NCBI GenBank assembly: GCA_017406405.1
Contig: JAFQYO010000007.1
Coordinates: 1 to 64,000 of the forward strand
Length of the DNA stretch: 64,000 nucleotides
Source: Candidatus Saccharimonadota bacterium
GTDB lineage: Bacteria; Patescibacteriota; Saccharimonadia; Saccharimonadales; Saccharimonadaceae
Direction of reading: 5' to 3'
Position 1 is the stretch's first letter. The number at the start of each line of letters is the position of its first letter. Below the pieces are notes generated by a model. That model was not told where the DNA came from, searched no databases, and was given only the letters and a program-made list of their open reading frames with translations. Both the position numbers and the translations under genes were made by a program. Of the stretch, positions 1 to 32,930 are shown piece after piece.

Positions 1-1
1 C

Positions 2-349
2 AACGCAACTGACAGTATATGCCCGAAGGGCTGGCAACTACCTACTTATTCCGGAGATAAGTCCTTTAATAACTTATTTGTCAATGGAGACTTAAGCTAC
101 GGCATGAGTAACTCCGGCTCCACCCGCGACTACGGCCTTCTTAGCGCTCCATTATCGTATGTGAGGAGTGGCTACTACTACTGGAGCTCTACGGGGCTTA
201 ACAACAGAGGTTCGGTCGGCGACTATTGGTCGCTTCGTTCCAGCAATACCACGCTCTCCAGCAGCCTGAACTTCAGCTCATCGAGCTTAAACCCTCAGGA
301 CTACAGCCGTCGCGGCTACGGGTTTGCGGTGCGTTGCGTATCGCAGTAG
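2..349 (+). CDS. DGR target protein, C-terminal part (C-type-lectin/FISUMP-like), 5' truncated by window edge
   Basis: The frame is open from base 2 to the TAG at 347-349, so the start lies left of the window. The residues after the edge (CPKGWQLPTYSGD, then RDYGLLSAPLSYVRSG) and the ending GFAVRCVSQ resemble the C-terminal part of the FISUMP/DUF1566-like and formylglycine-enzyme-like C-type lectin folds that serve as DGR targets. The last 60 or so residues are the variable region and are rich in Ser and Tyr at positions where the template at 946-1179 has AAC (Asn) codons. In this family the variable residues form a ligand-binding surface on a secreted or surface protein. The export signal, if any, is outside the window. 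I am confident of the DGR relation and less so of the exact fold. Confidence 0.85.
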   Translation, partial: NATDSICPKGWQLPTYSGDKSFNNLFVNGDLSYGMSNSGSTRDYGLLSAPLSYVRSGYYYWSSTGLNNRGSVGDYWSLRSSNTTLSSSLNFSSSSLNPQDYSRRGYGFAVRCVSQ

Positions 350-391
350 AGAGATCCGGTTCCGAGTTCCCGCTTGTTCCCTCCTCCCCAG
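158..391 (+). repeat. DGR variable repeat VR1
   Basis: This 234-bp stretch aligns without gaps to the template repeat at 946-1179. Codon by codon I count 20 differences in the variable stretch, and every one is at an adenine of the template: 15 of 19 template AAC codons changed (to TAC, AGC, GAC, GTC or CTC), AAT became CGT and GGA became GGC. The 3' part, from GGGTTTGCG through the stop codon to about 40 bp beyond it, is identical. That is the expected pattern of adenine-specific mutagenic retrohoming with an invariant 3' end acting as the initiation-of-homing region. Confidence 0.95.
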
Positions 392-404
392 ATTTTCTAG
401 GAAC

Positions 405-430
405 AGGCTAGCGTAACTCATCGCTAGCCT
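405..430. other. Inverted repeat (hairpin/cruciform) downstream of VR1
   Basis: A perfect 9-bp inverted repeat (AGGCTAGCG, 8-nt loop, CGCTAGCCT) begins 14 bp after the VR1 homology block and 55 bp after the stop codon. No T-tract follows, so it is not an ordinary terminator. In characterised DGRs a short inverted repeat just downstream of the VR promotes homing and is missing beside the TR. I see no such repeat next to the TR at 946-1179. Confidence 0.6.
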
Positions 431-470
431 GGAGGAGTAAAGAGGACGAAAACAAAAAGGTGAAAGTGCA

Positions 471-492
471 ATCCCCCGCAAAGGGGGATTTT
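471..492 (+). terminator. Rho-independent terminator
   Basis: ATCCCCC and GGGGGAT pair around the loop GCAAA and are followed by a short T run. It probably ends the DGR target transcript. Confidence 0.7.
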
Positions 493-520
493 GCAGTGAA
501 TGAGGTAGAAATAGTATAAT
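491..520 (+). promoter_or_regulatory. Putative promoter reading toward the template repeat
   Basis: TTGCAG (491-496), an 18-bp spacer and a perfect TATAAT (515-520) point rightward. No convincing ORF lies between here and the TR, so it could drive a non-coding template RNA. The predicted start is near 527, about 420 nt upstream of the TR. Confidence 0.45.
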
Positions 521-574
521 AGAGATGTATCGGCATCTCGATTTGGAATATTGAAAATCCATTCCAAAATCGAG

Positions 575-623
575 AAAAGGAAAATCAGAAGCACACTCTT
601 TTGAGTTCTGTATTGAGCTTGTT
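575..623 (+). repeat. TR-leader repeat, copy 1
   Basis: About 45 bp (AAAATCAGAAGCACACTC onward to TTGAGCTTGTT) is almost identical to 842-890. This copy lies in front of the deleted TR remnant at 675-743, whereas the second copy lies in front of the intact TR. Confidence 0.8.
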
Positions 624-674
624 CTATGGGACAGGTTCTAAGGAAGTTGCTTCTTTCGGCGCTTTTCGTGTCTC

Positions 675-743
675 TTTGCGGTGCGTTGCGTATCGCAGTA
701 GAGAGGTCCGGTTCCGAGTTCCCGCTTGTTCCCTCCTCCCCAG
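675..743 (+). repeat. Deleted TR/VR copy: only the invariant 3' end remains
   Basis: From TTTGCGGTGCG through the TAG stop to CCTCCCCAG this matches the 3' ends of VR1 and the TR almost base for base, but the whole adenine-rich part is missing. With its own leader copy at 575-623 it looks like a duplicated leader-plus-TR unit that lost its middle. Confidence 0.75.
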
Positions 744-746
744 CGT

Positions 747-813
747 TTCCTGCCGATACATTTTTGTATGGATTTGTTGTACAATGGTTATGTACTGGCA
801 TCCTTGGCAGGAA
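747..813. other. Inverted repeat between the two TR-like units
   Basis: TTCCTGCC (747-754) and GGCAGGAA (806-813) are perfect inverse complements enclosing about 50 bp. The role is unknown. It separates the deleted TR unit from the intact one. Confidence 0.4.
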
Positions 814-841
814 CATTCCCAAATCATTCTTGCAACAAGGA

Positions 842-890
842 AAAGAGAAAATCAGAAGCACACTCTTTTGAGTTCTATATTGAGCTTGTT
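842..890 (+). repeat. TR-leader repeat, copy 2
   Basis: Second copy of the leader found at 575-623, with a few substitutions. It ends about 55 bp before the intact template repeat and may belong to the template RNA. Confidence 0.8.
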
Positions 891-945
891 TTACGAAACG
901 GGCTTTTAACGAGATGCTTCTTCTGCTGATTTATTGTCTGTATTT

Positions 946-1179
946 TATGTGAGGAGTGGCAACTACAACTGGAACTCTACGGGGCTTAACAACAGAGGTT
1001 CGAACGGCAACTATTGGTCGCTTCGTTCCAACAATACCACGAACTCCAACAACCTGAACTTCAACTCATCGAACTTAAACCCTCAGAACAACAACAATCG
1101 CGGAAACGGGTTTGCGGTGCGTTGCGTATCGCAGTAGAGAGATCCGGTTCCGAGTTCCCGCTTGTTCCCTCCTCCCCAG
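946..1179 (+). repeat. DGR template repeat (TR)
   Basis: A 234-bp non-mutated template. It reads in frame as an Asn-rich copy of the target C-terminus because it carries 19 AAC codons. AAC is the codon that yields the most amino acids without stops when adenines are randomised. The frame has a short ATG-initiated opening from 934, but there is no ribosome site and no upstream part of the gene. All differences from VR1 are at its adenines. The RT that would copy it is not in this window: the next gene on the right is an unrelated methyltransferase. Confidence 0.95.
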
Positions 1180-6162: not shown

Positions 6163-6876
6163 ATGATAAAAGTATTTATAGATGAGTCTGGGAATATGGG
6201 TACATCGGGGAAGTATTTTGTGCTTGCGGGGCTTGTTGTCAAAACGGAGAAAGATGAAGCGAGAATTAAGAGAATAATTAAGAAAGAACAGAAGTTGAGT
6301 GCAAAAGGGAATAAGCTCGAAACGAGGAAAGAGGAACTAAAGTTTTCTAGAATGAAGTTTGAACAGAGACAGAGGATTTTAAATAAGCTCGTCAAGGAGG
6401 AGGGGATTTCTTTATATTATTTTGTCGCCTATAAACCGATGGTGAAGCTCTTACAGGAAGGGAAGACTAAGAATTTGGTTTATAATTATTTTTCGAAGTT
6501 GTTGATGAGTAAGGTGTTTCGGAGATATAAGGATGACTTTGAGATTGTGTTTGATCAGAGGTCAACAGCGGTGAAGTCGATGAATTCTTTGACGGATTAT
6601 ATTGAAATTTCGGCGTATGCGGAGTTCCCAGAGCTGATTGGGAAGAAGATTTCGGTCGGGCAGGCGGATTCGAGGACTAATTTATCACTTCAGGCGGCGG
6701 ATATTGTTGCGGGGGCGGGAGCGCAAGCTTATACGTTGAGGAATTTGCATTTTTTGGAGATTCTTGGGGGAAAGATTTTTGGGATTTTAGAATATCCGAG
6801 GAGAGGATTTAATGGGTCGCTCAAATTCGAAATAGGGAAGCGGAAGTTGATTGACAAACTTAAAGGGGAAAGCTAA
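6163..6876 (+). CDS. DUF3800 domain protein
   Basis: 237 aa. It begins MIKVFIDESGNMGTSGKYFV, the typical opening of DUF3800 (FIDESGxxG...YFVLxG), and carries a late DQRSTAVKSM segment and QAADIVAGA, matching the conserved C-terminal Gln-Ala-Asp part of that family. DUF3800 proteins have a predicted RNase H-like fold with Asp/Glu active residues and are often found near mobile elements and defence genes, but the activity is not established. It forms a two-gene unit with the 68-aa gene 26 bp upstream. No further partner follows: a terminator lies at 6961-6986. Confidence 0.8.
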   Translation: MIKVFIDESGNMGTSGKYFVLAGLVVKTEKDEARIKRIIKKEQKLSAKGNKLETRKEELKFSRMKFEQRQRILNKLVKEEGISLYYFVAYKPMVKLLQEGKTKNLVYNYFSKLLMSKVFRRYKDDFEIVFDQRSTAVKSMNSLTDYIEISAYAEFPELIGKKISVGQADSRTNLSLQAADIVAGAGAQAYTLRNLHFLEILGGKIFGILEYPRRGFNGSLKFEIGKRKLIDKLKGES

Positions 6877-11729: not shown

Positions 11730-11778
11730 TGTTCCGAGCATGTTCGAACCTCGTCAAATTGTTTTTCTAAGGTTTTTA

Positions 11779-11822
11779 TGAAATTTCAGTCATTTTTCAG
11801 TCATTTTTCAGTCGTTTTTCAT
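11779..11822 (+). repeat. Fic-flanking direct repeat, left copy
   Basis: A 44-bp block that starts TGAAATTTCAGTC and contains three CAGTC(A/G)TTTTT units. It recurs at 13232-13276 immediately behind the Fic gene with about three mismatches. Confidence 0.7.
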
Positions 11823-11878
11823 AGGAAATATTGTTTTTTTTCATATATTATGATATAGTGCCCTAAAAGGAGATTATT

Positions 11879-13234
11879 ATGTCTGGAGAATTTATCAAAT
11901 TAAAAAAACCCAATAATCTTTCAAAAATTGACACCACTAAGCTTTTCTCTGCTTATTTATCTGATCCGAAAAGTGCTTTTTCTTATTTCAGTAAAACTTC
12001 TAATGAAAAATATTTATATTGGGACAAAGCTCGCTTCGTTCGACCGCTTATTGGTGATTTTTCAGAAGCGGAATCTTGGGTTCTTTTACGCCAGATTCGA
12101 AGAATTACCTCTATCCCCATCAAGATTAAGGCAGAAAATGGACAATTTTTCTCTTGGCTTCGGCCGATTTATACAGATGAATTACTTAGAAAAATTGATA
12201 TGCATGCTGGTGGGCTTTTTCTCACCGAAAAAGATGCTATTTCTCAGAGTGCAGAGCGTCAGAAATATCTTGCGCGAGGTATCGTAGAAGAATCTATTGC
12301 CTCTAGCCAGCTAGAGGGCGCAGACACCTCTAGCCGTTATGCAAAAAAAATGATTGCCGAGAATATTAAACCTCGCAATAAAAGTGAACAGATGATTCTT
12401 AATAATTATCGAGTGCTTCAGAAAATTGAGAATGAATATAAAGATCAGCCACTTACACTTGGTTTACTCCAGACGCTACAGATGGAATTAACTGAAAAAA
12501 CCTTGTCTGAGAAATATATCCCAGGTAATTTTCGTCGTGACGAAGATGATATAGTGGTCTGGTATGACCAGAAAATTGCTCATGTTCCTCCGAAAGCGTC
12601 TTTTGTTCAGCGTGAACTCATTAGATTAATAGAATATGCCAATTCGGATCAACCATTTGTCCACCCTGTTATTAAAGCCATAGAATTACATTTTTGGTTA
12701 GGCTATCTTCACCCATTTCCAGATGGTAATGGTCGCCTCGCTCGTTCTATTTTCTATTGGTATCTTACGCGACATGGATATTGGGCATTTGCCTATTTAC
12801 CTATTTCCTCTGTTATAAAAAGATCTCAACATGATTATGCTTATTCGTATATTTATTCAGAACAGGATGACTTGGATTTTACTTACTTTTTTGATTATAA
12901 CATTCGACGCATAGTAAAATGTATCGATGAATTTCAAGCCTATATTGAAAGAAAAAGTGCCGAGAACAGCTCGCTTGTTGCTAATCTGCAAGATGTTGCT
13001 TCTGACTTAAATTCACGTCAGATTAATACATTAAGGTATCTCGTTAAGAATCATTCTTCTTATACTACCGCACAGGCGCACTCTATATTGAACGGCATTA
13101 CTCTTCGCACCGCATACTCCGATCTGAAAGATCTTAAATTTCGCAATCTTGTCATTCCTAAAAAACAAGGTAAAACAATTCAGTATCATCTTTCTGCTTT
13201 CGTAATAAAGCACTTGGATTTAAAAAACGACTGA
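11879..13234 (+). CDS. Fic family protein (AMP-transferase) with C-terminal winged helix
   Basis: 451 aa. The Fic core motif LHPFPDGNGRLAR matches HxFx(D/E)GNGRxxR fully, so the protein should be catalytically competent (AMPylation or related NMP transfer to a hydroxyl side chain). An inhibitory-helix motif, SSQLEG, sits near residue 142, as in class II Fic proteins, which restrain themselves until the helix moves. The last 80 residues resemble a winged-helix domain (SRQINTLRYLVKNH, TAQAHSILNG). An AGGAG site lies before ATG 11879. Codon use is unlike the neighbours: AT-rich, few GGG/CGA/TCG codons, so recent transfer is likely. It sits alone between tRNA-Ser and pyrG, bounded by direct repeats. 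Confidence 0.92.
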   Translation: MSGEFIKLKKPNNLSKIDTTKLFSAYLSDPKSAFSYFSKTSNEKYLYWDKARFVRPLIGDFSEAESWVLLRQIRRITSIPIKIKAENGQFFSWLRPIYTDELLRKIDMHAGGLFLTEKDAISQSAERQKYLARGIVEESIASSQLEGADTSSRYAKKMIAENIKPRNKSEQMILNNYRVLQKIENEYKDQPLTLGLLQTLQMELTEKTLSEKYIPGNFRRDEDDIVVWYDQKIAHVPPKASFVQRELIRLIEYANSDQPFVHPVIKAIELHFWLGYLHPFPDGNGRLARSIFYWYLTRHGYWAFAYLPISSVIKRSQHDYAYSYIYSEQDDLDFTYFFDYNIRRIVKCIDEFQAYIERKSAENSSLVANLQDVASDLNSRQINTLRYLVKNHSSYTTAQAHSILNGITLRTAYSDLKDLKFRNLVIPKKQGKTIQYHLSAFVIKHLDLKND

Positions 13235-13251
13235 AATTTCAGTCGTTTTTC
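13226..13251 (+). terminator. Palindrome overlapping the Fic stop codon
   Basis: AAAACGACTGAAA and TTTCAGTCGTTTT are exact inverse complements; the TGA stop (13232-13234) lies inside the left arm, and T runs follow. It may act as terminator and is also the start of the right flanking repeat. Confidence 0.6.
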
Positions 13252-13276
13252 AGTCGTTTTTCAGTCGTTTTTTGCA
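13232..13276 (+). repeat. Fic-flanking direct repeat, right copy
   Basis: Right-hand copy of the 44-bp block at 11779-11822, with three tandem CAGTCGTTTTT units. Confidence 0.7.
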
Positions 13277-13369
13277 TGAAAGTTTATTTGAACTTTGTTT
13301 GAAAAGATCGGAGCATTTGTGTATTTAGGCTATGCTAGCAAGATATAGAGAGTTACGGGGATATTAAGT

Positions 13370-15309: not shown

Positions 15310-15603
15310 TCGGGGAGGAGGGAACAAGGGAAACCTGGGACCCGGACCTCTCTACTGCGATACGCAACGCACCGCAAACCCGTTTCCGCGACTGTAGCTG
15401 TAGTACCGAGGGCCCAAGTTTGATGAGCGGAAGTACAGGCTGTAGGAGGTCGTAGTATTGTTGGAACGAAGCCACCAATAGTTGCCGTCCGAACCCCTGT
15501 TGCTAAGCCCCGTAGAGCTCCAGTTATAGTTGCCACTCCTCACGTACGATAATGGGGCGCTAAGGAGGCCGAAGTCGCGGGCGGAGCCAGAGTTGGACAT
15601 GCG
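15310..15603 (-). pseudogene. Orphan DGR variable-repeat cassette VR2
   Basis: Read on the minus strand this encodes MSNSGSARDFGLLSAPLSY, the variable region, GFAVRCVSQ and the stop (complement of 15352-15600), followed by the same 3' flank as VR1. The rest of the target gene is missing and there is no ribosome site at the ATG. Against the TR I count about 18 changes at adenines, 4 at other bases (TAC to TAT, ACC to ACT, TCG to TGG, TCG to TCA) and one inserted codon. It therefore arose by DGR mutagenesis, but from a slightly different template or long ago. It occupies most of the 383-bp gap between pyrG and argS. Confidence 0.85.
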
Positions 15604-32703: not shown

Positions 32704-32930
32704 TTATTGGAAAAATGTAAACGCAAACCCGTTTCCGCGAGAGTTGCTGACCTGAGGGCCTAAAGTCGACGAGCTGAAGTACAGGTCGCTGGAGTTCGTA
32801 GTATTGTCGGAACGAAGCGACCAATAGTAGCCGACCGAACCTCTGTAGACAAGCCCCGTAGAGGTCAAGTTATAGTAGCCACTCCTCACATACGATAATG
32901 GGGCGCTGAGAAGGCCGTAGTCGCGGGTGG
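32704..32930 (-). pseudogene. Orphan DGR variable-repeat cassette VR3, 3' truncated
   Basis: On the minus strand, homology to the target gene begins near 32930 (STRDYGLLSAPLSYVRSG) and runs through the variable part to GNGFAF, where it breaks off: the conserved VRCVSQ end and 3' flank are gone and the frame ends at TAA (complement of 32704-32706). Against the TR I count 22 changes at adenines and 4 at other bases. Two of those four (TAC to TAT, ACC to ACT) are shared with VR2. Without the 3' homing region it should no longer be a target. It fills most of the 276-bp gap before truB. Confidence 0.85.

What the first reader, a model, noticed from the sequence alone, without database searches (positions are those of the whole stretch)
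158..1179. Diversity-generating retroelement: VR1 differs from its template only at adenines
VR1 (158-391) and TR (946-1179) are both 234 bp and align without gaps. In the variable part I count 20 substitutions, all at TR adenines, affecting 15 of 19 AAC codons plus one AAT and one GGA. The 3' parts are identical through and beyond the stop codon. The lack of any other difference implies recent homing. The target resembles a C-type-lectin-like surface protein, so this reduced bacterium probably diversifies a binding protein.
Basis: seen in the sequence. Interest (0 to 1): 0.95.

Follow-up and report, generated by a model that had tools for sequence, protein, structure and literature searches.

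The report
DGR with silent variable-cassette library
A tiny Saccharibacteria species rewrites the tip of one surface-type protein with a mutation-prone reverse transcriptase, and it and several relatives also keep dozens of start-less but still readable copies of past versions around the genome, a combination that we did not find described before.

Summary
VR1 (158-391) and TR (946-1179) align without gaps. They differ at 20 positions, all template adenines (P about 5e-13), in 15 of 19 AAC codons plus one AAT and one GGA. It is a diversity-generating retroelement (DGR) of a Saccharibacteria genome. The only RT (GIVIGNLSSQ, YVDD) lies on another contig, and the target is a surface-type protein with a FISUMP-like C-terminal domain.

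The larger finding lies outside the reported coordinates. The same 700-kb genome holds 26 short silent copies of the variable region, two in this window and most in tandem arrays. They lack a start and (nearly all) the full IMH tail, yet carry about 35 nt of target-gene flank that is absent from TR. They are hypermutated at TR adenines, derive largely from an older template, and are never interrupted by a stop codon. The same architecture occurs in other species of the genus (about 44 copies in G022, 19 in G011, about 22 in G008). G030 has about 84 copies and no detectable RT.

Best reading: a DGR coupled to a library of archived, selected VR variants, probably donors for gene conversion. Copying out and recombination among copies are supported; conversion back into the expressed gene is not shown.

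The parts
1..349 (+). 3' end of the target gene (115 codons, stop at 347-349); its 5' part (971 aa) is most likely the end of contig C9 (115-nt exact overlap)
   Evidence: Fib_succ_major/FISUMP
123..157 (+). Target-gene flank 5' of the TR homology (CCCGCGACTACGG...); present in the silent cassettes, absent from TR
158..391 (+). VR1, homing-competent variable repeat, 20 A-only differences from TR
318..391 (+). 3' invariant part (IMH region), identical to TR through and past the stop codon
404..431 (+). Perfect 10-bp inverted repeat with 8-nt loop just 3' of VR1 (DNA fold -12.1 kcal/mol, z -5.3), like the hairpin/cruciform used by DGR targets
575..749 (+). Remnant of a second TR: leader copy 575-655 (81% to 842-922) and IMH tail 675-749 (99% to 1111-1185), adenine-rich core deleted
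842..922 (+). Leader upstream of TR, with a motif also found upstream of TR in species G022 (AAAATCAGAARCACACTCT)
946..1179 (+). Template repeat (TR)
15312..15598 (-). Longer silent VR cassette with IMH tail between two genes; 17 A-site and 5 other changes from TR; no target ORF upstream
32722..32930 (-). Short silent VR cassette between two genes; 22 A-site and 5 other changes from TR; frame open, no start, IMH tail missing

Best explanation
The window holds the template, the 3' end of the target gene and two silent copies of a Saccharibacteria DGR. The RT, encoded elsewhere in the genome, copies TR with errors at adenines and rewrites the variable repeat of one surface-type FISUMP-domain protein (inferred from the A-only differences). 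Variable repeats that had served in the expressed gene have been copied, with about 35 nt of gene flank and mostly without the full IMH, into intergenic sites, where they form tandem arrays and scattered single copies (inferred from the flank, from selection on the variants and from dispersed positions). The short cassettes no longer receive homing, recombine among themselves, and are kept free of stop codons. The most likely use is a donor library: segments are converted back into the expression site by homologous recombination, as in vls, pilS or tprK systems. Shown: the A-only VR/TR pair, the cassettes, their flanks, shared variable tracts, the absence of stops. Inferred: selection through use and conversion into the expressed gene.
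For: A-only VR/TR. 30 DNA matches to TR and 35 protein matches to VR in the genome, most in five arrays with 213-275-nt spacing (one gap of 504) that is mostly not a multiple of 3. Cassettes carry target flank absent from TR. The three homing-competent VRs have 0 non-A changes, while 26 cassettes have 1-43, and 23 of 26 keep what looks like an older template base (T where TR and all three VRs have C). No stop in 26 cassettes (19 expected) with syn:nonsyn 230:104 against 140:194 simulated. The same in 42 G022 cassettes (0 stops, about 48 expected). Even changes private to one copy give 0 stops against 6.2, 5.2 and 7.4 expected in G000, G022 and G030. Template adenines in scaffold codons: synonymous changes as frequent as at AAY sites (24 vs 24.4), nonsynonymous nearly absent (7 vs 79.6); G011 26 vs 27.5 and 11 vs 61.9. 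Shared variable tracts between different arrays exceed all 300 permutations in G000 and G022; PHI on non-A sites p = 0.012 and 0.03. RecA is present. G030: about 84 stop-free cassettes with the DGR codon signature and no RT.
Against: No expressed VR was found that carries a cassette tract: VR1 is purely TR-derived, and the full-length G030 gene is not tiled by its cassettes (31 of 196 nt). Private changes in cassettes are otherwise neutral-like (even over codon positions, syn:nonsyn between about 1:2 and 1:4), so constraint beyond 'no stop' is weak. In G022 synonymous scaffold-adenine changes are also low (5 vs 15.4), so sequence context of the RT may contribute. The genomes are draft MAGs broken at these repeats.
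Confidence: 0.5

Rival explanations
1. Write-only archive: an ordinary DGR whose selected variants are occasionally copied out (ectopic recombination or misdirected retrohoming) and then decay; the cassettes have no function.
For: Private changes are spread evenly over codon positions; expressed VRs show no cassette tracts; some species of the genus with the DGR have few VR matches and so few or no cassettes, e.g. G031, G034, G027.
Against: No stops even among private changes (about 19 expected over three genomes, 0 seen), only in-frame gaps in the G000 alignment, highly diverged yet open copies (up to 69 of 128 non-A sites), retention of about 84 copies in a 700-kb genome without RT.
Confidence: 0.3
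2. Many live targets: each silent copy is itself a direct target of retrohoming, so this is a DGR with unusually many VRs.
For: Long copies with full IMH tail show 0 non-A changes although at least two of the three in G000, and all three in G022, are 5'-truncated; several G011 copies have 0 non-A changes.
Against: Short cassettes lack the IMH tail and carry bases of an older template. Direct unselected homing should mutate scaffold adenines like the others, but the nonsynonymous ones are depleted five- to tenfold.
Confidence: 0.12
3. The cassettes are a small mobile element with defined ends that happens to carry the VR.
For: Uniform ends within a species (G011 CTTTCCCGCTCCGG..GCCTTGCCCGCTAG; G030 two end types), 5' junctions at pyrimidine tracts, often right behind a stop codon.
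Against: No target-site duplications seen by eye, ends differ between species, linkers shared between arrays in different order point to recombination. A transposase or integrase was not systematically searched for.
Confidence: 0.08

Closest known systems
Diversity-generating retroelements (BPP-1 type; Patescibacteria DGR clade 2 of Roux 2021, PMC8144416)
   Same: A-only VR/TR pair, DGR-type RT, invariant 3' end, hairpin behind VR (compare PMC3240598), AAY-coded variable residues; compact target-TR-RT locus in sister species G031
   Different: Here RT and TR are far apart, and the genome carries 26 short start-less VR copies, nearly all without full IMH. Surveys report multiple VRs mostly in multiple target genes (PMC6642488), and the metagenome survey could not see remote VRs (PMC8144416).
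Silent-cassette antigenic variation: vls of Borrelia (PMC11499132), tprK of Treponema (PMC8480903), pilS of Neisseria
   Same: One full-length gene recovered, many start-less partial copies in arrays, shared tracts between copies, short homologous flanks
   Different: Variation inside the copies is DGR-made, copies lie in several arrays and singly among chromosomal genes, no stops seen in G000, G022, G030 (they do occur in vls), and transfer into the expression site is not shown here
Treponema denticola DGR with remote and leftover targets (PMC4891356)
   Same: Remote VRs, and a VR that fits another TR type better than the present TR
   Different: Those are genes; here they are trimmed silent cassettes in arrays

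Membership tests
Diversity-generating retroelement | VR differs from TR at template adenines only | tested here: met
   20/20, 19/19 and 16/16 differences at A in three VRs
Diversity-generating retroelement | RT with DGR-type motif ([IVL]GxxxSQ, my prior knowledge) and catalytic YxDD in the genome | tested here: met
   Only PF00078 hit, C14:38072-39187, GIVIGNLSSQ and YVDD; conserved in four relatives
Diversity-generating retroelement | RT phylogenetically within the DGR clade | not tested
   No tree built; in L084 and L085 the same RT family sits between target and TR
Diversity-generating retroelement | Invariant IMH/IMH* end and downstream hairpin | tested here: met
   Identical 318-391 / 1106-1179; hairpin 404-431
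Diversity-generating retroelement | Target domain with C-type lectin or Ig fold | tested here: inconclusive
   FISUMP-like by HMM below cut-off; model failed
Silent-cassette gene conversion system (vls/pilS/tprK type) | Multiple start-less partial copies of an expressed gene | tested here: met
   26 short cassettes in G000, more in G022, G011, G008, G030; lack of transcription not testable here
Silent-cassette gene conversion system (vls/pilS/tprK type) | Recombination among copies | tested here: met
   Shared tracts beyond permutations, PHI on non-A sites
Silent-cassette gene conversion system (vls/pilS/tprK type) | Non-reciprocal conversion of cassette sequence into the expression site | tested here: inconclusive
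   Not seen in VR1 or in the G030 gene; reads or strains needed

The most novel reading that the evidence does not exclude
A two-stage surface-diversification system: a DGR invents variants of one adhesin-like protein, selection keeps working ones, and a genome-wide library of silent cassettes stores them as donors for gene conversion; a sister species (G030) runs on the stored library after losing the RT.
Probability: 0.42. Interest if true: 0.92.

Novelty: new variant of a known kind. Interest (0 to 1): 0.8.

Why it matters
A DGR overwrites the previous variant at each homing event, so successful variants should be lost. A genomic archive of selected variants would give such a system memory and would link two separately known diversification strategies (retroelement mutagenesis and silent-cassette gene conversion). 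It would also explain how highly reduced, host-dependent bacteria keep a large binding repertoire, and it makes the age and history of DGR variants readable from single genomes.

Tried and rejected
(1) Repeat-protein reading of the arrays: rejected, start-to-start distances are mostly not multiples of 3. (2) Strong purifying selection on each cassette: rejected as stated; private changes are neutral-like except for stops. (3) Four-gamete test alone: 308 of 351 site pairs, not used as proof because homoplasy is likely; PHI on all columns was not significant, on non-A sites weakly so. (4) Patchwork test for conversion in the G030 gene: negative. (5) Structure of the target domain from 4 sequences: failed, pLDDT 32, so no fold search was run. 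(6) TR near the RT in G000: none found by the whole-genome TR search. (8) PDB sequence search: no match.

Full report
OBSERVATION. VR1 and TR are as described: 234 nt each, no gaps, 20 differences, every one at a template adenine (11 to G, 6 to T, 3 to C), in 15 of 19 AAC codons, one AAT and one GGA. The chance that 20 random differences all fall on the 64 adenines of 234 positions is 4.5e-13. The last 74 nt, including the stop codon, are identical, and a perfect 10-bp inverted repeat follows VR1 (404-431), as behind DGR targets (PMC3240598).

SETTING. The window is the start of contig C4 of a 698-kb draft genome in 20 contigs. A scan of species genomes with its RT finds the nearest relatives in three Candidatus Saccharibacteria MAGs at 56-70% identity. 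The single RT gene of the genome (C14:38072-39187) has GIVIGNLSSQ and YVDD, and a 264-aa conserved gene without a family match lies just upstream. No TR lies beside it. In relatives the same RT family sits in compact loci, target-accessory-RT-TR (L084, L085) or target-TR-RT (G031, where all 20 substitutions in the variable part are at A). The target gene most likely continues to the left as the end of contig C9, a 971-aa N-terminal part with a hydrophobic N-terminal segment and the start of a FISUMP-like domain.

THE WIDER FINDING. A TR search of the genome returns 30 matches and a VR-protein search 35. Besides TR and three VRs with a full 3' tail there are 26 aligned copies, 24 of them in five arrays (C14 twice, C8 twice, C17) and two alone in this window. 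They start at about CCCGCGACTACGG, 35 nt upstream of where TR homology begins, and nearly all end in or just behind GGGTTTGCGGTGCG; the window copy at 15312-15598 is longer and keeps the tail. So they contain target-gene sequence that TR does not have and cannot be simple TR cDNA. Spacing is mostly not a multiple of three, and they have no start of their own. Linkers such as CGACACAAGAACC and CAAAAAACTCCTCACC recur in different arrays in different order. Of the three tailed VRs, at most one belongs to the full gene: the left-hand partners C8 end and C16 start are truncated copies whose upstream frame is closed. The C4 copy has the longest 3' flank and is the best candidate for the expressed gene (inference).

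WHERE THE VARIATION COMES FROM. The three tailed VRs differ from TR at 20, 19 and 16 adenines and nowhere else. The cassettes differ at 14-30 adenines and at 1-43 other positions. One base (C in TR and all three VRs) is T in 23 of 26 cassettes, so most cassettes probably descend from an older template. None of the 26 has a stop in the VR frame and all gaps are 3 or 6 nt. Non-A changes are 230 synonymous to 104 nonsynonymous, against 140 to 194 in simulation, with 0 stops against 19. Split by frequency, the common changes carry the synonymous excess and private changes look neutral (19:39), yet private changes too give no stop (6.2 expected). Template adenines outside AAY codons tell the same story: synonymous changes occur as often as at AAY codons (24 vs 24.4), nonsynonymous ones hardly (7 vs 79.6), and base composition at the second position of AAC codons differs between sites (p = 0.008). 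Hence the archived variants look filtered for protein function. Sequence preference of the RT is a possible contributor that these data cannot exclude.

RECOMBINATION. Two cassettes in different arrays share a 45-nt variable tract containing 14 adenine sites, above the maximum of 300 column shuffles. G022 has a duplicate pair and a 55-nt shared tract, again above all shuffles. PHI on non-A sites is weakly significant in both (p = 0.012, 0.03). RecA is encoded.

OTHER SPECIES. Nearly all same-genus genomes (35 of 36, the own genome included) match the VR protein; none of 24 genomes from other families of the order do. G022 has its own TR (C2:67091), three tailed VRs with 19-24 A-only differences, and 47 units in all including TR, about 25 of them within 10 kb on C7 on both strands; 42 analysed cassettes have no stop against about 48 expected. 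G011 has TR beside its RT and 19 copies with 0-60 non-A changes and uniform ends, one of them with a stop. G008 has about 22 copies whose TR was not recovered; G013 has 26 mostly weak matches. G030 (97% complete) has 91 matches, 84 aligned; 83 have no stop and the remaining one was a misplaced frame. Diversity is .70/.58/.37 by codon position in 14 hypervariable codons against .25/.22/.40 elsewhere, and no RT was found by two searches. Other species hold families of full-length genes instead.

MECHANISM AND LIMITS. The steps 'DGR rewrites VR', 'variants were copied out with gene flank', 'copies recombine' and 'copies stay readable' are supported. The step 'copies are converted back into the expressed gene' is inferred from the last of these and from the resemblance to vls, pilS and tprK. 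Direct tests were negative or impossible: VR1 is purely TR-derived and the G030 gene is not a patchwork of its present cassettes. The rival, a write-only archive, must explain why about 19 expected stops among private changes are missing in three genomes. It could do so if those changes arose in the expressed gene before copying. Draft assemblies of repeats may contain chimeras, but arrays lie inside contigs between unique genes and recur in several species.

NOVELTY. Searches of open full text for DGR with silent cassettes, gene conversion, antigenic variation, pseudogenes or Saccharibacteria found no description of such a library. Multi-VR DGRs are known but mostly as several target genes (PMC6642488), remote VRs escape the metagenome survey (PMC8144416), and antigenic variation has only been raised as a question for another patescibacterium (PMC11809585). 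Subscription papers and preprints were not searchable. I file the core as a true DGR and the whole as a new variant of a known kind.

Noticed in passing
window 575-749: Remnant of a second TR: conserved leader plus IMH tail with the adenine-rich core deleted.
   Followed up: partly
L062:17278-18072 (G000 C14:37277-38071): 264-aa gene directly upstream of the RT; similar-sized genes sit beside the RT in G011, L084 and L085; no family match; probably a DGR accessory protein.
   Followed up: partly
G030, loci L158-L198: A genome with about 84 silent VR cassettes of two end types, both strands, and no RT detected; possibly a DGR lineage that lost its RT.
   Followed up: partly
5' junctions of cassettes in G000, G011, G022: Cassettes begin at pyrimidine tracts and often directly behind the stop codon of the preceding gene; 3' ends fall in the presumed cDNA priming region. 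The copying-out mechanism is unexplained.
   Followed up: partly
G003, G018, G028, G033: Same-genus species with about 18-27 FISUMP-domain matches, most in long reading frames (full-length genes), instead of cassettes: an alternative diversification strategy.
   Followed up: no
window 11768-11836 and 13221-13289: Two clusters of an 11-nt repeat (TTTTTCAGTCG) before and at the end of a 451-aa gene; function unknown.
   Followed up: no
window 6163-6876: DUF3800 gene (Pfam 1.4e-14).
   Followed up: no
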